A stretch of 64,000 bases of DNA, taken from contig CAXKWD010000005.1 of assembly GCA_964059195.1 (NCBI GenBank), positions 139,463,686-139,527,685 on the forward strand, read 5' to 3'. The translations under genes were made by a program, and so were the position numbers. Source of the DNA: Ectobius pallidus. Lineage: Eukaryota; Arthropoda; Insecta; Blattodea; Ectobiidae. Below are positions 6,030 to 63,639 of the stretch, piece by piece (positions within the stretch are counted from its first letter, which is position 1; the number at the start of each line of letters is the position of its first letter). Under the pieces are notes generated by a model that made no database searches, was not told where the DNA came from, and saw nothing but the letters and a program-made list of their open reading frames with translations.

Positions 6030-6575
6030 ACGCCTCCAGGAATTTCATTAAGGGGGTGGCAAACTCTAAATTATTCCAGACACAATTATGCTTATTTATT
6101 AGGCTAAATCATACAGTAATCTATAATAATATTCATTTACTGTCGTGAAAAATTAGTCGTTTTTGGAGAATAATTTATATAAATGTACTGTAACCAATTC
6201 GTAATTAAAGTTAATGCACGTTCAAGTGATACGAATGATATTTTATTATGATCGACTGAAAATCAATTTCGGACCTCAATTTCAAATGATTAGGCTAAAT
6301 ACATTTATATTCACATAATTTTTCGTCCTCCAGCTGAATTCGACGAGGCTGCAAAATTTTTAAATTAACAGAGCAACGGTCTTGATGACAAATTATTACA
6401 AATACACAGAGGCAGTTGTAATTATAATAAGTTAATACTTGCTGAAGTCATAAAATATTTTTAATTTTTATTCTCCATGCAACAGGTTGGCAGACAAGAA
6501 TAACCAAAAAATAAATGATTTCATAAGGCGTTCCAGAGGGCGACAGTAATTGTTCCCCCATGCCGACGACCTTGG
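6030..6575 (-). mobile_element. hAT-like element, family B, copy 3 (reversed)
   Basis: The reverse complement follows the same order of landmarks: GGAACGCCTTATGAAATCA, the CTCGTCGAATTCAGCTGG block, the TCCGAAATTGATTTTCAGTC block, then an end related to GAAATTCCTGGAGGCG. It is the most diverged of the three copies. Confidence 0.6.
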
Positions 6576-7576: not shown

Positions 7577-7680
7577 GTGCCAGAATAGTACTTTCTCAGA
7601 TTGCTTGGTAAACGGGGAAAATATCTGTCCGTCCATGTGTCTGTACGCGCGAAAACTCGAATGCGCTTTATTATAATATT
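7577..7680 (+). repeat. Dispersed repeat family G, 5' fragment
   Basis: AAGTGCCAGAATAGTACTTTCTC, then CTGTCCGTCCATGTGTCTGTACGCGCGAAAACTC, corresponds to the first 100 bases of the family. It is cut off by the SINE hairpin starting at 7681. Confidence 0.6.
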
Positions 7681-8262
7681 TTGGGAAAATGGTATATTGC
7701 GACTCACCCTACTCTCAATCCCTCCCCTAGCGGCGGCATTTGAACTACTAGCAGCGACGGTAGCGCCATCTCTTAATGAATGATGAAACAGAAAAAATAA
7801 TTTGTTTCTTCTTTATTCTCTTCTTCTCTTCCTTTCCCGTCTCCTTCCTCTCACCCTACCTATCTATTTGAGACCTATTCCTAATAGTAAATTTTGGATC
7901 GTCTGCATATAACTCATATATGCGAAAGCTTCCTTCAATGCTCAACGTTCACTCGTGGCGTAATGGCTAAGACCCCTAACTATAATGCCAGGGGTCCCGA
8001 GTTCAAGTCCAGGTTGAACCAAAATTTACTAGTAGGAATAGGTCTCAAATAGGTAGGCAGGATGAAGAGGAGGTGAGAGGAAGGAGACGGGAAAGGAAGA
8101 GAAGAAGAGAATAAAGAAAAAATAAATTATTTTTTCTGTTTCATCAGTTGCGTAAAAGATGGCGCAACCGTCACTGATAGTAGTTCAAATGCCGCCGCTA
8201 GGGGAGGGATTGAGAGTAGGAGTGGGGGACTTGGGTGTGTCGTAATGTGCCATTTTCTCAAA
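7681..8262. repeat. Head-to-head SINE pair forming a long hairpin
   Basis: Arms at 7681-7897 and 8019-8262 are imperfect reverse complements of each other. They share TAGCGGCGGCATTTGAACTA, a polypyrimidine/polypurine stretch and GAGACCTATTCCTA, around a 121-base loop. The loop carries a tRNA-like pol III promoter for the right copy: A-box-like TGGCGTAATGG at 7956-7966 and B-box-like GAGTTCAAGTCC at 7999-8010. The left copy is reversed and lacks its tRNA-like head. The pair lies about 1.2 kb upstream of the COA1 coding exon. Confidence 0.75.
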
Positions 8263-9465: not shown

Positions 9466-9489
9466 TATTTTTTTTTAATTTTAGGCAAG
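9466..9489 (+). promoter_or_regulatory. 3' splice site and 5' UTR start of COA1
   Basis: A T-rich tract ends in TTTTAG at 9479-9484, followed by GCAAG and the ATG at 9490. This is a standard polypyrimidine tract plus AG acceptor. It indicates that transcription starts in an upstream exon that I could not locate. The presence of an intron argues against COA1 here being a processed retrocopy. Confidence 0.7.
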
Positions 9490-9906
9490 ATGGTTTCCAA
9501 CCGAACACTTGCTAAGATCGCCGCTTATGGAGGGATTGTTGTTGCAAGTACCGGGTTTTTCCTCCACTGGAAATTGCAAGATAGGTTAAAAAGTACAGAA
9601 TTTCATAAAGAAGCCATGAAGATACTGAGAAACCATAAGCCATCTGTGTCACTCTTAGGAGAACCAATTAAGGTTGGAAATGTTGATATTGGAAACAGCA
9701 GTGCTAACTTCTGTGATGGAAAACGTGCACAGTTTGAAGTTCCTGTAAAAGGTCCAAAAGAGAAGGGCACTCTTTATTTCTGGGCTAATAGAGAAGATGT
9801 ACAAGAAAAGTGGAACGTTTACAGACTAGAACTTGAATTAAAGAAGGATCAGACTAAGAGATTACTTATTAAGAATGAACCTCAAAATGTAGGTACTAGA
9901 GAATGA
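9490..9906 (+). CDS. COA1: COA1-family cytochrome c oxidase assembly factor
   Basis: This encodes a 138-residue protein that I assign to the COA1/TIM21-like family. COA1 is a small mitochondrial inner-membrane protein acting early in assembly of respiratory complexes, classically cytochrome c oxidase. Visible in the sequence: a short basic N-terminus, one hydrophobic segment at about residues 9-27, then a soluble domain. That domain has the family pattern: LGEPI at 56-60, a G-N-V-D-I stretch at 62-67, VPVKGPKEKGTLYF at 84-97 (the strand-turn-strand typical of COA1), then W108 and an L-E-L-E-L strand at 113-117. The length fits the family (human COA1 is about 146 residues). The ATG lies 6 bases after a good 3' splice site, so the whole coding region is in one exon and a non-coding 5' exon is expected upstream. 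There are no frameshifts. TIM21 is a less likely alternative because the protein is short. Confidence 0.85.
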   Translation: MVSNRTLAKIAAYGGIVVASTGFFLHWKLQDRLKSTEFHKEAMKILRNHKPSVSLLGEPIKVGNVDIGNSSANFCDGKRAQFEVPVKGPKEKGTLYFWANREDVQEKWNVYRLELELKKDQTKRLLIKNEPQNVGTRE

Positions 9907-12934: not shown

Positions 12935-13765
12935 TATAGGAATATAAATGAAGGTAGGCCTAGAATTAAATGGCAGTCACCCAATTTTAGTTAATGCAGA
13001 TGATGTTTGTCTATTGGGCAATGACATAAACACAATCGAGAGAAATACTGAAAGTCTTTTCCATGTCTGTAGGAATGTTGGATTGGAAATTAATGTAAAA
13101 AAAAACTAGTATATGGTCATGAAACATCAAAGTAATGCGTTACAAAATATCAGAATAGCTGGTAAATCGTTCGAACAAGAAATTCAAATATCTGGGAGCA
13201 ATATTTACAGAAACAAATAATATTAAGGTAGAAGTAAAGTGGCAATTAAAATCAGGAAATGCTTGTTTTTATGCAGTTCAGAAACTCATATCTTCCTGTC
13301 TTCTGTCCAGGAAACTAAAAATAAAAATGTATGCCGGTTTTACTATATGGATGTGAGACATGGTCCCTTACTTTTCGGGAACAACATAATCTGAGTGTGT
13401 TTGAAAACAGGGTGCTTAGGAAAATATTTGGGCCTAAAAGAGATGAAAATGGGGACTGGAGAAAACTGCATAAGAACGAACTTCATAATCTGTACTCTTC
13501 ACCGGATAGTAAGGGTAATTAAATCACGGAGGATGAAATGGGCTGGAAATGTTGCACATATGGGGGAGGAACGACATATCTCAGAAGTATTGAATGTGAG
13601 ACCCAAAGGAAAAAGAGCATTTGGAAGACCTAGACATAGGTGGGAAGACAGTATTAGGATAGATTTAAGAGAAGTAGGCTTTGCAAGAGATGGTTGGATG
13701 GAGTTAGCGCAGAATAGGGTTGACTGGCTGGCTTATGTAAGCACGGCAATAAACCTTTGAGTTCC
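12935..13765 (+). pseudogene. Non-LTR retrotransposon, 3' part of reverse transcriptase ORF, broken
   Basis: This is the C-terminal half of a LINE-type polymerase. Visible pieces: LVNADDVCLLG at about 12990-13020 (the catalytic A-D-D box), GLEINV, then VLLYGCETWSL at about 13337, VFENRVLRKIFGPKRDENG, and in another frame IKSRRMKWAGNVAHMGEER and GRPRHRWEDSIRIDLREVG, ending WLAYVSTAINL-stop at 13760. A frameshift near 13500 and further breaks before 13330 show it is dead. The 5' portion is missing, the usual outcome of truncated reverse transcription. Similar elements are abundant in many insect genomes. Confidence 0.88.
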
Positions 13766-14356
13766 ATAAAATGGATAATATTCCTTTAGCTCTATTGACA
13801 TTGAGTAAGTAAGGAATATAAATGGGCTCCTGAAGGCCCACCAAATGGTTTTCTAATTGAAACATGAATATTTTAGCATAATTTGAGCAGCAGAGAGAAG
13901 GCATGGACAGAGAGATAAAGACTGTTGCAAGCAACTCTAACTGTCCAATCCACTTTAGCTCTCTGTGGTTCTCAGTCCATCAGATAATGTATCAGACAAT
14001 TGATCTACCATTCGTGATTGTAATCCACCTTGTTGTCATCATCAGCTTCTAGAAACACACATTGATGTAGCATTCTACCTTTTGAATAATGCATCTAGTC
14101 TATGGCAGTTTACATTTTATTAACTTGTCACCTCATATATTAACCTAACACATAAATTTTACACCTCAAGAAATGGATAAAATTAGCATTATTGCATTAA
14201 TAGAGCAACAATTTATAATAATACTAGTAGTAATTGCACACAATGTGCATTGTTCAGTTAGATTTAAGCAACTCACTGATTGCAATCTTTCTTGCCTCAC
14301 ATTCCACTATATGGTATCTACTGCACTCCTTCCCACACATTGCACACATGCACGAT

Positions 14357-16654
14357 TTAGACCATGGGCTACCAATAGCAAACCCTCCCCCCCCCCCCGT
14401 GGGATTTTCTGGCACACATATTTTTTTGTTGATATTATCGTCTAGTTTAAGATTTTAGTTGTTTGCCCCTTATCAATTACAGCATTTACCCGGAAACCCC
14501 GGAAAACCACGGAAATCCGGAGAAAATGGGGTTGTTTTAATTTTTTATTGTTCTTTGCCCCTAATATTCCCAGAGAATTTCTGACTCACATATTTTTGTT
14601 CGTATTGCCATCTAGTTTAAGGTTTCAGTTGTTTGCCCCCTTACAAATTACAACATATCCCCGGAAAACCCGGAAAGCCACGTATATACGGAGAAAATTA
14701 CTATGTTTTGGTTTTTAAATCTTTGTTCTTTGCCCCTAATATTCAAAGGTAATTTCTGACTCATATGTTTTTTTGTTGCCATTACCATCTAGATTAAGAT
14801 TTCAGTTGTTTGCCCTTATCAATTACAGCATATCCCCGGAAAACTCCGAAAACCAAGGAAATCCGAAAAAATTGACTTCTTTTGAATTTTTGAAAATCTT
14901 TGTTCTTTGCTACTAGTATTCAAAGGGAATTGGTAAATCATATGTTTTTGTGTTGGTATTGCCATCTAGATTAAGGTTTCAGTTGTTTTCCCCTTACCAA
15001 TTACAGCATATCCCCGGAAAACCCGGAAAACCACGTATATACGGAGAAAATGACTATGTTTTCTTTTTAAATCCTTGTTCTTTGCTCCTAATATTCGAAG
15101 AGAATTCCTGACTCATATGCTTTTGTGTTGGAAGTGCCAACTAGTAAGGTATCAGTTGTTTTCCCCTTACCAATTACAGCATGACAAAAAATAATGATGC
15201 TGAAGGGATGAAAGCGATTGAAAACCTGGCAGCACACCCTTCATATTTTAATGTGAACAAAAATATGTGTCAGAAATTCCCTGGGAATATTAGGGGCAAA
15301 GAACAATAAAAAATTAAAACTATTTGTAAGGGGCAAACAACTGAATCCTTCAACTAGATGGCAATACGAACAAAAATATGTGAGTCACAAAGTCCCTTTG
15401 AATACTAAGAGCAAATAACTAAGGTTAAAAAAATTAAAACAAAGTAATTTTCTCCGGATTTCCGTGGTTTTCAGAGTTTTCTGGGGAAATGCTGTAATTG
15501 ATAAGGGGCAAACAACTGAAACCTTAATTTAGATGGCAATACCAACACAAAACCGTATGAGTCACTAAGTCCCTTTGAATACTAAGAGCAAATAACTAAG
15601 ATTAAAAAAATTAAAACAAAGTAATTTTCTCCGGATTTCCGTGGTTTTCCGAGTTTTCTGGGGAAATGCTATAATTGATAGGGGGCAAACAACTGAAACC
15701 TTAATCTAGATGGGAATACCAATACAAAAACATATAAGTCACCAATTCCCTTTGAATACTAGGAGGAAAAAACATAGATTAAAAAAAATAAACAAAGTAA
15801 TTTTCTCCGGATTTCCGTGGTTTTCAGAGTTTTCTGGGGAAATGCTGTAATTGATAAGGGGCAAACAACTGAAACCTTAATTTAGATGGCAATACCAACA
15901 CAAAACTATATGAGTCACCAAGTCCCTTTGAATACTAGGGCAAAGAACTAAGATTTTAAAAAATTTGAACAAAGTCATTTTCTCCGGGTTTCCGTGGTTT
16001 TCGGAGTTTTCCGGGGATATACTGTATTTGATAATGGGCAAACAACTGAGACCTTAATCTAGATGGCAATGCCAACAAAAAAAAACATATGAGTCAGAAA
16101 TTCCCTTTGAATATTAGAAGGAAAAACAAAGATTGAAAAAATAAAACATTGTCATTTTCTCCGTATATACGTGGTATTCCGGGTTTTCCGGGGATATGTT
16201 GTAATTGGTCAGAGGCAAACAACTGAAACCTTAAATTAGATGACAATACCAACAAGAAATATGTGAGTCAATAATTCCCTGGGCATATTAGGAGCAAAGA
16301 ACAAAGAAAAATTAAAACAAAGTCATTTCTCCGGATTTCCGTTGTTTTCCGGGGATATGCTGTAATTGATAAGGGGTAAACAGCTAAAAACTTAATCTAG
16401 ATGGCAATACCAACAATAAATATGTGATTCAGAAATTCCCTGGGCATATTAGGAGCAAAGAACAAAGAAAAATTAAAACAAACTAGTTTTCTCCGGATTT
16501 CCGTAGTTTTCCGGTGTTTCCGGGTAAATGCTGTAATTGATAAGGGGCAAACAACTAAAATATGAAACTACATGTCAATACCAACAAAAAATATATGAGT
16601 CGGAAAATCCCACGGGGGGGGGGGATGGGGGGTATACAGTAGCCCACGCTCTAA
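14357..16654. mobile_element. 2.3-kb foldback element with long tandem-repeat inverted arms
   Basis: The left arm (to about 15180) holds five units and the right arm (from about 15250) holds eight units of the same sequence in reverse, each about 170-178 bases. The anchor GTTTGCCCC occurs at 14461, 14631, 14808, 14985 and 15158. Its reverse complement occurs at 15331, 15505, 15682, 15858, 16035, 16212, 16374 and 16545. Each unit carries a CCGGAAAA-CCACGGAAATCCGG-like segment, and some carry the palindrome CGTATATACG. The outer ends mirror each other: TTAGA..GTGGGCTAC, a C-rich run, then CGTGGGATTTTC. A unique spacer of about 70 bases separates the arms. The design resembles Drosophila foldback or Galileo elements, whose terminal repeats are also tandem arrays. 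I found no clear target-site duplication and no transposase. Confidence 0.8.
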
Positions 16655-16659
16655 TTCTC

Positions 16660-17110
16660 CTGGATCATGAAACAGTTTCGTGGTAAACATTTTAAAGTGG
16701 AACCCGTGTCCAGCCAGGCCAGTCACTATATATCTTTTCTTGTAGTTGGTTCGAGTCCAATCTTGGATCATCATGGCGTCTATCGTATAGAACTCTTGCC
16801 ATATGCCTTTCCTCTTATCCTCCCTTTCCCTGATGACTTCATACCAGCTGTCCGTAGGTGGTAGCTACAGCTTGATTCTTAAGTCCTCCACAAAATATGT
16901 CTCTCTTGCTAGGATGTACACAAGTCTAGAGGGCGCGAACTTTGATAGACCCAGGACTCTCTTCAAATACCTCGCCTTTACGCTTTCTATTTCCCTCATC
17001 TAATTTGTTGTGATGTGATCCCAGACATATTCGATCCCATATGCTTTTGTGGGCACTATCTTCGCCTCAAACAGTTTCATTGCTGTAGTGAGTGACATCA
17101 GGTTTAAATC
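16660..17110 (-). pseudogene. LINE polymerase C-terminal remnant
   Basis: On the minus strand, from 17110 downwards, it reads LTTAMKLFEAKIVPTKAYGIEYVW, a stop, MREIESVKARYLKRVLGLSK, PSRLVYILARETYFVEDLRI, and later YIVTGLAGHGFHFKMF. This is a recognisable LINE-encoded polymerase tail with stops and frameshifts. It abuts the right end of the foldback element. Confidence 0.7.
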
Positions 17111-18526: not shown

Positions 18527-21500
18527 CTGAAAATATATTTTTCATTAACTTGGTTCTCATAGGTAATGTCATGATTGTTTGTGAAATTACTGATAGATAC
18601 AAAGCAAGAAAGTTGCAAAGATATTTGTCTAAGGAATTTAAAAAGTATTATTGCATTTATAATTTCTTACTTAAGAAATAAACTAGAATGTAAGCATTGC
18701 ACATGTATTAGAAAGTATATTTTAATTGAAGTGTTACTTGAATACATAATGTTAGAACACTTTCATAACATGGGATGTATTCTTCGTGAAGAAATGACAG
18801 TTGTAACCATTGTTTGCCCAAGTATAAAGAGTCAAGATATTATAACAGCGCATATTTTAACTGCTTGTTGCTCCAGTAGAAACAAACAAAAAAATTCAGA
18901 TATTATTTTTGTCCCGAGTGAATACTTTTCTCAGAAAAAAAAAACATTTATTCCTAAATTCAGCTGTGATTTACTTATGTATGTAATTATGCAGTTAAAA
19001 GTGCTCCAACAAGTATTTCACGTTACCCAGTGTAGTAGTGAATGTCAGTGTAAAAGTTTAAGTTGATATTAACTATTTTCAGGATTATTAGTTTTTCTTT
19101 ATTAAGTGCCAGAATGGTACTTTCTGATATTGTGTGGTGGATGGGAAGATGTCTGTCTGCCTGTCCATATGTCTGTAAACGTGATAACTCAAATATGCTT
19201 GTCATGAAACTTGGTATACGCATTTATAATTTCCATGAGAAGAAGCCCATTGATATTGGACCAAATTGGTTGACCAGTACCTGAGTAATGCCCAATTTAG
19301 AGCCTATTTTAATATATTAGAAAGAATTTATCAAATGCAAATCAGTTCTAATGACAATATATGACTGAGGAGAGAGATTCCATCTGGCGCTGTGAATTGA
19401 ACTCTGGCTTAGCTCAGTTGGTAGAGCATTGGCACAAATAGCCAAAGGTCCTGGGTTCGAGTCCCAGTGTCGGAGGAATTTTTCTCCCGTAATATTTTCA
19501 TGTAATGTCCAACAGAGACAATAATCAGTGGTTCATGAATGCTTATATATCTATATTATTTCAATTTCTGACCTATTGTGTATGCATAATTCAAATATTT
19601 GATCAAGAGCCAGAGCATTGTCGCCTCTGCGAGAAAATGACTGGGGCAAACCCAGCAACAGAGGTTATTATTATATGCTTGAAGACATAGGTGCTGACTT
19701 GCAAAATCTTTTGAGGGTGCTCACTCAGAAAAGGAAAATCACATACAAGTTCAATAAAACTTACAATTATGTTAAAAATCCTTCATTACAACAAACAACA
19801 TTATTAAATGGTCTACATAAACGCTCTATACATAGTCTGTTTAATCAATAGGCCTAGTTACTATATTATTATCAATGCTACTTTACCACCTGAGGATTAA
19901 TAAAATCGTAACATCTTTTGCCAAAGAAAGGTGGCCTATTTGCGAATTTTGTTTTTATTGAAAATGTCTGCCTACGAATTTTGTTTATACTAATAACTCA
20001 TTTGCTATTCCAAACAAATCTAAAAGCATAGCTTCTTCTCTCTGGGAATGAATAATGATGTTACAGAATTTTTTAAATCTTCTTACCACAGTGCCTCTCT
20101 AGGTCTCTCTCTCAGACAGTCTCTTTGTAACATTAGATTGGATAGTTGTGGAAACTGGGATGTCTGTACATTATAGGTTTGTTCGCAAAGCAGTCAGAAA
20201 CCAGGAACAAATCGTTCGCGCATGCGCTCTTTCTCCACACGCGTTCGCAAAGCGAGAATCCGTGATTCTGATTTCAATCTTCTGTTCGCAAAGCTCTCAC
20301 GGACAGTTTCTGTACTATAAGAAAAATTTGCAGGCTCTACCATTAATTGTTATCAGAGACATTCGCAGTAACCTATTTTCACGCGCCTGACTCCTCCCTC
20401 CAAATCCTTGCTCCAGATTTATAAGCATAGGCTACTTATATGTATGAATAATGGAAGATAATTAAAAGTTTCCCAAAATATAGTTTATATTGCCGATGTA
20501 TATTGCATGTATAACATGTTAAAGGGAAATATATATTTTATTTGCATATCATATCGATTAAATGCAGAAACTATCGATTCCAAATTCTTCTAACCGTTCG
20601 CAAAGTGCAAATCACGGGTAAGTTACAGACTGGACTTGCGCAGTACAACCAATTCTCAAGCAGTCATGGATTTGCTTTGCGAACAAACCTTATATAAATA
20701 CTCCTTATATCGTTAGTGTGAATACTTGTAGGAAGTATGTATTTAAATAATGGACCGAGCCTGCCTAGTAGTAGTAAGATTGATCCAAAAAGTGCCATGC
20801 TGAAGTGACATCCAATCAAGACCTCGCCTAATAGTCTTGTAAAGTGATGTAACCATGTGGGCCTTCTATCTACTTTTATTGAGTGCTTCAAAACAAAATA
20901 CATTGGGTTTACCAGTAAGCAGTGAAATAATGATATGGCATGCATCTGTTCATTCGTTATTTTGTCATGGTTTGTGTTCATTTTACTGATATTTAATTTT
21001 AATGATTATGATATTAGGTGAAATAGCGAAGGTGAGTTAACAACAATAACCCGGGTACTTTTCAGGTTATAGTGCTTTTATTTTCATTGTCCCCACATGG
21101 CGAGTCAAACGTCAGCATTTTCTTTTGTGGTTTGCTGGATTACATTATTGTTTATTGAGGGTAAACATATTTGCACTCTCAGATCCAAGCAGGTGGCAGA
21201 CTCTGTTGCCAAGACAATCTAATAATGATAGTGATATAGGCATAATACAAAATTTTGATGTTTCTTTGATTCTCGTTTCCGACTGAGACATAACAACACT
21301 TCCACTTGCGGCTAGTAAAGAGTGTGTCCTTCTTGCATCAAACAAACAACATTTCAAATACAGCACCGCTGGGGACGATGATATTAATACAACTATTTAA
21401 AAACTATCCTCAAGCATAGTGATTTTTAGTTTTTGTGACAAATTGGAACAGACAAAAGAACCATTTGATTTTTATACAAGTATAAGATTATGATTATACC

Positions 21501-23277: not shown

Positions 23278-23999
23278 CATGGGCGTTGCCAAGGGGGGGA
23301 AATGCCCCCTCGCCCCTCTTTGGAATGCCTTATGGATTCATTTTGGTATTCGCTGTCTGTCAACCTCCAGTTGTTGCATGAAGAATTAACAAATGTAAAT
23401 ACTGTATACTGAGTTTAGCAAGTATTAACTTATTATGATTATAAATGTCTCAGTATATTTAAAATAATCCGTAATTAAGGCTGTTACTCAAAAGAACGTA
23501 ATCTGTTAATTTAAAAACTTTGCAGCCTCGTCGAATTCAGCTGGGGATCAAAACTAAGGGAGGGAACTATGAGAATATCAATGTATTTAGACTAATCATT
23601 TGAAATTGAGGTCCGAAATTGATTTTCAGTCGATCATAAAATATCATTCGTATCACTTGGAGTACACTTATTAATTACTGTCGTATTATCACTAATTGTT
23701 CATGATAGTAAATTAATTCTTATTATAGATTACTTTATAATTTAGCCTAATAAATGAGACTCATTGTATTTGGAATTACGTTGTGTTTATTTTTTATTTA
23801 TTTATTTATCAATAAAGAGTAATAATGCTCATAACTAGGGGCAGTACAACAACAATAACAGAACAGAACAACAATATATTTTCTAAGATCTAGGAAAAAG
23901 TACAATGATTAAATATAACCTAATGAAACATAGTACATTACTAAGGGTATCACAGAAGGCCCCCCCCCCTCTCTTAACAAAATTCCTGGCGACGCCCCT
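23278..23999 (+). mobile_element. hAT-like element, family B, most complete copy
   Basis: The left end CATGGGCGTTGCCAAGG and right end CCTGGCGACGCCCCTG are imperfect inverted repeats. The flanks ATTCCCTA and ATTCACTG match at 6 of 8. Shared interior landmarks with two other copies here are TGGAATGCCTTATGGA, CTCGTCGAATTCAGCTGG and a block around TCCGAAATTGAT. No transposase reading frame is visible. Confidence 0.65.
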
Positions 24000-24660: not shown

Positions 24661-24961
24661 CGGGGTACGCCGTAGTTTAATGGTTTAGGCGCTGCGCTAC
24701 AAACCGGAAGGTCGCGGGTTCGATTCTGGATGAGGTCATTGGAGTTTTTCAATTGGACTAATCCTTCTGGTGACACTATGGCCCTGGGGTCGACTCAGCC
24801 CCTAACAGAAATGAGTTCCAGGAGCAGTCCTGGGGGTAAAGGCGGCCGGTGCTTAAGGCTAACAACCTTACCAGCTTCACGTGCCGAACGTCCAAAATCT
24901 GGGAGCCTCAACCTCCTGGAATCCTCTAGACCTCCTTGGTTTGTATAGGGATCACTTTACT
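24661..24961 (+). repeat. tRNA-derived SINE, family D copy 1
   Basis: The pol III head has an A-box-like GCCGTAGTTTAATGG at 24669-24683 and a B-box-like GGGTTCGATTCTG at 24716-24728. The body includes CTAATCCTTCTGGTG.CACTATGG and ends GGGATCACTTTAC. It aligns along its length with 59424-59702. Confidence 0.8.
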
Positions 24962-31449: not shown

Positions 31450-31987
31450 TCTGGGCATGTGTCATGAGCAACTGCCCTCCTCTGGAATGCCTTATGGAAT
31501 CATTTATTTTTTGGTATTCTTTATCTGTCAACCTGAAGTTGTTGCATGGAGAACAGAAAATATAAATATTTTATAATGAATTTAGCAAGTATTAATTTTT
31601 TATAATTATAACTGCCTCAGTTTATTTATAATAATCCGGCACCAGGGCTATTGCTCAAAAGAACGTAATCTGTTAAAGTAAAAACTTTGCAGGCTCGTCG
31701 AATTCAGCTGGGGTTCAAAACTACGGGCCGGGAAACTATGTGAATATTATTGTATTTAGTTTAGTCATTTGAAATTGAGATCCGAAATTGATGTTCAGTC
31801 GATCATAATAAAATATAATTCGTATCACTTGAACGTGGATTAACTTCAATGAATAATTAGCTCGATTGTAATATCACTGATTGTCCACTTTAGTAAATGT
31901 ACAATTTAGCCTAATAAATAATAATTGTGTTTGGAATTATGTTGAGTTTGCCCCCGTTAATAAAATTCCTGGCGACGCCCCTGACAA
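31450..31987 (+). mobile_element. hAT-like element, family B, copy 2 (left end lost)
   Basis: It follows the 23278 copy from TGGAATGCCTTATGGAATCA (about 31483) through CTCGTCGAATTCAGCTGG to the same right end, CCTGGCGACGCCCCTG. The left inverted repeat is not recognisable. Confidence 0.65.

Positions 31988-56281: not shown

Positions 56282-63639
<7,358 letters not shown>

What the first reader, a model, noticed from the sequence alone, without database searches (positions are those of the whole stretch)
14357..16654. Foldback element built from 13 inverted tandem units of about 175 bp
Five units in one direction face eight in the other across a spacer of about 70 bases, and the outermost ends also mirror each other. 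Spacing is very regular (mostly 173-177). This architecture matches foldback/Galileo elements, whose long terminal repeats are tandem arrays, but I recognise neither the unit nor its superfamily. Transcripts through it would form a hairpin with arms of nearly 1 kb, a natural source of double-stranded RNA and endogenous siRNA.
Basis: partly seen in the sequence, partly recalled or inferred. Interest (0 to 1): 0.75.

Follow-up and report, generated by a model that had tools for sequence, protein, structure and literature searches.

The report
Foldback transposon with tandem-repeat arms

Summary
The array is a discrete insertion, 14358-16653 (2,296 bp): a terminal domain of about 45 bp at each end, four full and one partial ~175-bp units on the left, seven full and two partial on the right, and a unique 73-bp spacer. 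Both flanks are halves of one LINE reading frame. Relatives of that LINE put the net insertion at 2,299 bp: the element plus an exact 3-bp ATT duplication. Unit types run in a similar outer-to-inner order in both arms, though only one of three cross-arm pairs is well supported. Best explanation: a non-autonomous foldback-type DNA transposon moved by an unknown transposase. The 3-bp duplication does not fit Galileo (7-8 bp) or Tetris and Tm1 (8-10 bp). It fits the ANT target of Pangu (PIF/Harbinger relatives), but the terminal bases do not, so the superfamily is open. A transcript would fold into a very stable hairpin (-1151 against -528 +/- 11 in 20 shuffles); expression and siRNAs are untested. 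The genome search did not complete (16 tries), so copy number, other insertions and an autonomous partner are unknown.

The parts
14355..14357 (+). left target site duplication, ATT
   Evidence: identical to 16654-16656; net insertion length from LINE relatives
14358..14402 (+). left terminal domain of the inverted repeat (TAGACCATGGGCTAC..., with a C run)
   Evidence: alignment of the two ends; inner edge approximate
14403..14472 (+). outer partial unit L1
   Evidence: where it was cut as 14396-14472 with the end of the C run; start approximate
14473..15169 (+). four complete units L2-L5 (14473-14648, 14649-14820, 14821-14996, 14997-15169)
   Evidence: TRF; unit alignment
15170..15182 (+). 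13 bp of a further unit at the inner left end
15183..15255 (.). unique 73-bp spacer (hairpin loop); a short open frame from 15181 has no relative found
15256..15326 (-). inner partial unit of the right arm
15327..16540 (-). seven complete units R8-R2 (starts 15327, 15502, 15679, 15855, 16032, 16209, 16370)
   Evidence: TRF; unit alignment
16541..16611 (-). outer partial unit R1
   Evidence: outer edge approximate
16612..16653 (-). right terminal domain of the inverted repeat (TAGAGCGTGGGCTAC... on the minus strand, with a C run)
   Evidence: inner edge approximate
16654..16656 (+). right target site duplication, ATT
16657..17110 (-). host LINE, part upstream of the insertion in its reading direction (contains stops)
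   Evidence: translation, relatives; outer edge approximate
14258..14354 (-). host LINE, part downstream of the insertion (Cys-rich C-terminus and stop)
   Evidence: translation, relatives; outer edge approximate

Best explanation
It is a non-autonomous cut-and-paste DNA transposon of foldback form. Shown by the sequence: nearly all of it is two inverted arms of ~175-bp tandem units round a 73-bp spacer, it interrupts a LINE, and its mirror-symmetric ends are flanked by ATT on both sides at the net length that LINE relatives require. Suggested, with modest support: unit types run in the same outer-to-inner order in both arms, so the arms are copies of one another that later gained or lost units separately. 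Inferred: a transposase made elsewhere in the genome recognises the ends and moves it, and the repeated units, each with a block of TTTCCG/CCGG motifs, serve as repeated binding sites, as some repeats of Galileo do. Inferred: unequal exchange or gene conversion changes unit number. Any transcript through it would form long double-stranded RNA; whether it is transcribed or diced is unknown, and a role for that RNA is not needed to explain the structure.
For: Unit structure and inverted arms. Both flanks encode adjacent parts of one LINE protein on the minus strand. Of 1,190 flank joins scored in a script against four LINE relatives (P0001-P0004), the best 11 all remove 2,299 bp; the ATT join scores 1861 (third, tied with three breaks that give the same sequence) against a best of 1865, the TA join 1585 (rank 500). 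The distance from H-x-P to C-x-C is three residues in all 31 of 59 relatives that match that motif. With net length fixed and ends mirror-symmetric, only the 3-bp and the trivial 1-bp duplications are exact; longer ones match 3 of 5, 3 of 7, 3 of 9 bases. Outer arms: 247 identities in 279 aligned bases; whole arms 718 of 818, 587 gap bases. Unit tree: L2 with R2 (0.88), L3 with R4 (0.73) in a clade with L5 (0.97), L4 with R5 (0.55). TTTCCG is at 9.1 per kb in the element against 0.44 in the rest of the window. Extra transposase-domain sites in Galileo repeats, shown by gel shift for two of four repeats: PMC3688188 (passages).
Against: Only one copy was seen; the genome search gave no answer in 16 tries, so no transposase and no second insertion could be looked for. 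A join without any duplication at the same ends is also in frame and scores 1819, rank 41 of 1,190; it needs one extra residue that none of the 31 motif-matching relatives has. An exact 3-bp repeat at symmetric ends is not rare by itself: the scan of 42 offsets gave two, ATT and an inner ATA; the weight lies in its agreement with the net length (about 2% by chance, my own estimate). Two of three cross-arm clades are weak, the L4/R5 one on a branch of nearly zero length, and L5 has no collinear partner. The minus-strand fold has fewer pairs across the spacer (510 against 740). Motif density follows from the repetition of one unit, so it is not independent evidence for binding sites.
Confidence: 0.85

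Rival explanations
1. More specific reading: it is a non-autonomous member of the PIF/Harbinger-related (PHIS) superfamily, of the Pangu type, that evolved foldback arms.
For: The ATT duplication fits the ANT target of Pangu; most PHIS elements have 3-bp duplications; the 34 Pangu families come from 15 genomes, among them two beetles, a fly and an arachnid; PIF/Harbinger terminal repeats reach 1,042 bp (PMC4482050, abstract, passages and sections 5 and 6).
Against: Pangu repeats usually begin AG or GG and are 11-40 bp long; here they begin TAG and the arms are 825 and 1,398 bp. One duplication cannot establish a target consensus, and no transposase is known. CMC (2-4 bp duplications) also fits the length.
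Confidence: 0.3
2. It is a Galileo/P or Mutator-type Foldback/Tetris/Tm1 element.
For: Tandem units of similar size in long inverted arms: about 210 bp and about 140 bp in Galileo, about 220 bp in Tetris.
Against: These make 7-8 bp (Galileo) or 8-10 bp (Tetris, Tm1) duplications; here the flanks match 3 of 7 and 3 of 9 bases at those lengths, while the arms are 88% alike, so decay alone is an unlikely cause.
Confidence: 0.05
3. It is a hairpin RNA locus kept for making endogenous siRNAs against related sequences.
For: Very stable predicted plus-strand hairpin, with eight uninterrupted helices of 22-46 bp (G-U pairs allowed). Drosophila hairpin RNAs are processed by Dcr-2 and load AGO2 (PMC10292708, passages).
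Against: The hairpin follows from the transposon structure. No transcript or small-RNA data were at hand; the spacer peptide has no relative found; the arms differ by about 12%.
Confidence: 0.06
4. It is a satellite array that inverted in place, or an assembly artefact.
For: Tandem units of satellite-like length; inverted arrays can arise by misassembly (general knowledge).
Against: Sharp ends that mirror each other, flanking ATT repeats, insertion into a LINE of known length, and arms about 12% apart.
Confidence: 0.03

Closest known systems
Tetris (foldback transposon of Drosophila virilis)
   Same: No coding copies found; inverted repeats with a terminal domain and ~220-bp tandem units in variable number; non-coding middle (PMC4079207, passages)
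   Different: 8-10 bp duplications, placed in Mutator by its authors; here 3 bp. The sequences were not compared
Galileo (P superfamily)
   Same: Long inverted repeats with tandem units whose number differs between the two ends; transposase-domain sites in some repeats (PMC3573991, PMC4168063, PMC3688188, passages)
   Different: 7-8 bp duplications; tandem units only in some copies and only part of the repeat; copies with transposase-coding segments exist
Tm1 (Mutator/Foldback, root-knot nematodes)
   Same: Composite inverted repeats of variable length built largely of tandem units (PMC3169594, passages)
   Different: Units of 13-15 bp; mostly 9-bp duplications (8-10 bp in 45 of 53 complete elements)
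Tc4 (Caenorhabditis elegans)
   Same: Fold-back structure (from a cited title) and a 3-bp duplication (PMC11071193, passages)
   Different: Target C|TNA|G; here the duplication is ATT and the site does not fit CTNAG. I recall no ~175-bp tandem units in Tc4
Pangu group of PIF/Harbinger relatives (PHIS)
   Same: 3-bp ANT duplication (PMC4482050)
   Different: Repeats of 11-40 bp usually beginning AG or GG; no foldback arms mentioned in the two sections and passages read

Membership tests
Foldback-type DNA transposon (structural class) | Long inverted arms making up most of the element, with internal tandem units | tested here: met
Foldback-type DNA transposon (structural class) | Discrete insertion with target site duplication | tested here: met
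   ATT/ATT with net length from LINE relatives; a join without duplication ranks 41 of 1,190
Foldback-type DNA transposon (structural class) | Dispersed copies at other sites in the genome | tested here: inconclusive
   no second copy in the other 61.7 kb of the window, best E 0.036; the genome search gave no answer in 16 tries
Galileo (P superfamily) | 7-bp (rarely 8-bp) target duplication | tested here: not met
   3 of 7 bases match; definition
Galileo (P superfamily) | P/THAP transposase in autonomous relatives | not tested
   own genome not reached
Mutator-type Foldback / Tetris / Tm1 | 8-10 bp target duplication | tested here: not met
   3 of 9 bases match; definition
PIF/Harbinger (strict) | TWA target duplication | tested here: not met
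   duplication is ATT; definition
Pangu (PHIS) | ANT target duplication | tested here: met
   ATT, one insertion only; definition
Pangu (PHIS) | Terminal repeat of 11-40 bp, usually beginning AG or GG | tested here: not met
   begins TAG; arms 825 and 1,398 bp
Pangu (PHIS) | Related DDE transposase | not tested
   no coding copy at hand; own genome not reached
Tc4 | Insertion at CTNAG with TNA duplication | tested here: not met
   the site around ATT reads CG-ATT-CT; definition
Endogenous siRNA hairpin locus | Transcription and 21-22 nt Dicer products from the arms | not testable with these tools
   no RNA data

The most novel reading that the evidence does not exclude
The foldback form with large tandem-unit arms arose independently in a superfamily that makes 3-bp duplications, possibly the Pangu/IS5-like branch of PIF/Harbinger relatives. 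That would make arrays of repeated transposase sites a general, convergent solution rather than a habit of the Mutator and P lines.
Probability: 0.35. Interest if true: 0.55.

Novelty: new variant of a known kind. Interest (0 to 1): 0.4.

Why it matters
Foldback elements can seed satellite DNA (Tetris, PMC4079207), and Galileo copies have caused chromosome inversions (PMC2775673, listing and abstract start). [quoted passage not shown] A family with the same large-unit arms but a 3-bp duplication would show that this form evolves repeatedly, and would give another place to test whether the repeats help the transposase find its ends.

Tried and rejected
Copies elsewhere: the element against the rest of the window gave nothing below E = 0.036. 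Unit patterns gave no exact match in viral contigs (2 of 8 scans used) or genome contigs (a second scan was allowed and not used), and blastn gave none in the phage collection. These collections are poor places to find insect DNA, so this says little.

Spacer as captured gene: the open frame at 15181-15306 looked protein-like, but has no Pfam match up to E = 1, no PDB match up to E = 10 and no relative up to E = 10, with only 1 candidate. By my own estimate such a frame is not rare at this base composition, so I do not claim it.

TA duplication (Tc1/mariner): the first scan of symmetric ends listed TA among other short candidates. It was dropped because its join ranks 500 of 1,190 against the LINE relatives. 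The two top-scoring joins (1865) place the break 4-5 bp from mine with the same net length; the protein comparison fixes the length, not the exact base, which rests on the mirror symmetry of the ends.

Relatives dropped before the spacing count: 28 of 59 did not match the motif search. In 10 of these I read the same three-residue spacing by eye with one or two anchor residues changed (P0006, P0013, P0016, P0022, P0028, P0030, P0035, P0037, P0046, P0055); the other 18 show no such stretch in the last 70 residues, which is all that the call printed.

Papers: ten searches of an open-licence library. In the titles and abstract starts listed (at most 20 of up to 148 papers per search) I saw no foldback element with large tandem units and a 3-bp duplication. 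That is weak evidence of absence: lists were capped, few papers were opened, and papers outside that library were not searched.

Full report
What is there. The window looks eukaryotic and is AT-rich, with a Coa1 gene part at 9466-9903 and a TB2/DP1/HVA22 (REEP-like, recalled name) exon within 60657-61169 on the minus strand. Between 14358 and 16653 lies an inverted tandem array: TRF finds periods of 175 and 177 with 4.5 and 7.3 copies, and inverted pairs up to 187 nt long, among the 25 listed of 63, link the two blocks. Cut at a common phase, there are complete units L2-L5 (172-176 bp) and R2-R8 (161-177 bp), with partial units at the outer ends and at the inner right end. Pairwise identities between complete units run from 78 to 93%. 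The 73-bp spacer has no clear similarity to the arms.

Where it sits. Translated on the minus strand, the sequence right of the array reads ...KRYIVTGLAGHGFHFKMFTTKLFHDPGELE and the sequence left of it reads ...CMCAMCGKECSRYHIVECEARKIAISELLKSN-stop. These are neighbouring parts of one LINE protein. A joined query found five relatives at E up to 0.001 among 19 candidates; the best four are 41-48% identical over 97-99% of the query. A profile search found 59 among 4,445 candidates, several with a reverse transcriptase domain (PF00078) and six named from Periplaneta americana or Blattella germanica. The host is therefore likely an insect (inference); the species was not identified.

The footprint. 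In 31 of 59 relatives a motif search found the stretch H-x-P to C-x-C, always three residues apart; in 10 more I read the same spacing by eye with one or two anchor residues changed; the other 18 show no such stretch in the part printed. Joining the flanks at 1,190 combinations of ends and scoring against four relatives, the best 11 joins all remove 2,299 bp. The two ends of the array are mirror-symmetric about positions 14358 and 16653. Element length 2,296 plus 3 gives 2,299, and the three bases on either side are ATT and ATT; longer duplications of the required net length match at only three bases. So the sequence supports an insertion with ends TAGACCATGGGCTAC / TAGAGCGTGGGCTAC and a 3-bp duplication. 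Against this: the same ends without any duplication also give a frame, scoring 1819 (rank 41) against 1861, at the cost of one extra residue; and an exact 3-bp repeat turned up at two of 42 symmetric offsets. With the net length fixed I put the chance of an exact match at about 2% (own estimate): good, but not proof.

How the arms arose. A FastTree of the 11 complete units groups L2 with R2 (0.88) and R3 (0.91); L3 with R4 (0.73) and L5 (0.97); L4 with R5 (0.55, on a branch of nearly zero length); and R6 with R7-R8 (0.78, 0.92). Outer-to-inner order is thus shared as far as it can be read, except that L5 has no collinear partner. The whole-arm alignment gives 718 identities and 100 mismatches, with three large gaps (161, 175 and 233 bp), all extra sequence on the right. 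The simplest history is one multi-unit repeat copied in mirror image, then unit gain on the right or loss on the left.

How it works. I found no coding capacity in the element: the spacer frame matched nothing and the arms are repeats. It would have to be moved by a transposase from elsewhere (inferred). Each unit holds a block rich in TTTCCG and CCGG. Galileo's tandem repeats carry extra binding sites for its transposase domain, in the first two of four repeats, shown by gel shift (PMC3688188, passages), and I infer the same use here. As RNA the plus strand would fold arm to arm, with 740 pairs across the spacer and an energy of -1151 against -528 +/- 11 in 20 shuffles; the minus strand gives -1191 with 510 such pairs. 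This is a property of the shape, not evidence for a role in RNAi.

What it resembles. By form it is close to Tetris, Galileo and Tm1. By footprint it is not one of them: 8-10, 7-8 and mostly 9 bp respectively. Among groups with 3-bp duplications that I read about, Pangu (ANT) fits the bases; PIF/Harbinger (TWA), NuwaI (CWG), NuwaII and Tc4 (TNA in CTNAG) and Fot (TAA) do not. Pangu repeats usually start AG or GG; these start TAG. I leave the superfamily open.

What is missing. The own-genome search gave no answer in 16 tries, so the central tests (copy number, other target sites, an autonomous partner) were not done. The verdict rests on one copy.

Noticed in passing
7680-7900 and 8016-8262: A second inverted-repeat structure: arms with 203 identities in 221 aligned bases, 26 gap bases, 115 bp apart; ends and duplication not determined.
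   Followed up: partly
19402-19476: tRNA-Phe-like sequence with anticodon AAA (Rfam tRNA 19403-19475), unusual for a working tRNA-Phe; perhaps the head of a SINE (recalled, not tested).
   Followed up: no
23391-23639, 31558-31808, 6196-6328: Three related dispersed repeats: two direct (86-88%) and one inverted to them (87-95%).
   Followed up: no
24662-24840 and 59424-59602: Dispersed direct repeat, 79% identical.
   Followed up: no
2265-2505: 78-bp unit repeated 3.1 times, 82% matches.
   Followed up: no
13395-13757: Open frame that looks like the C-terminal tail of another non-LTR retrotransposon (by eye and from memory; no Pfam match), just left of the element.
   Followed up: no
14387-14398 and 16614-16632: C run in the left and G runs in the right terminal domain of the element; possible slippage sites, meaning unknown.
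   Followed up: no
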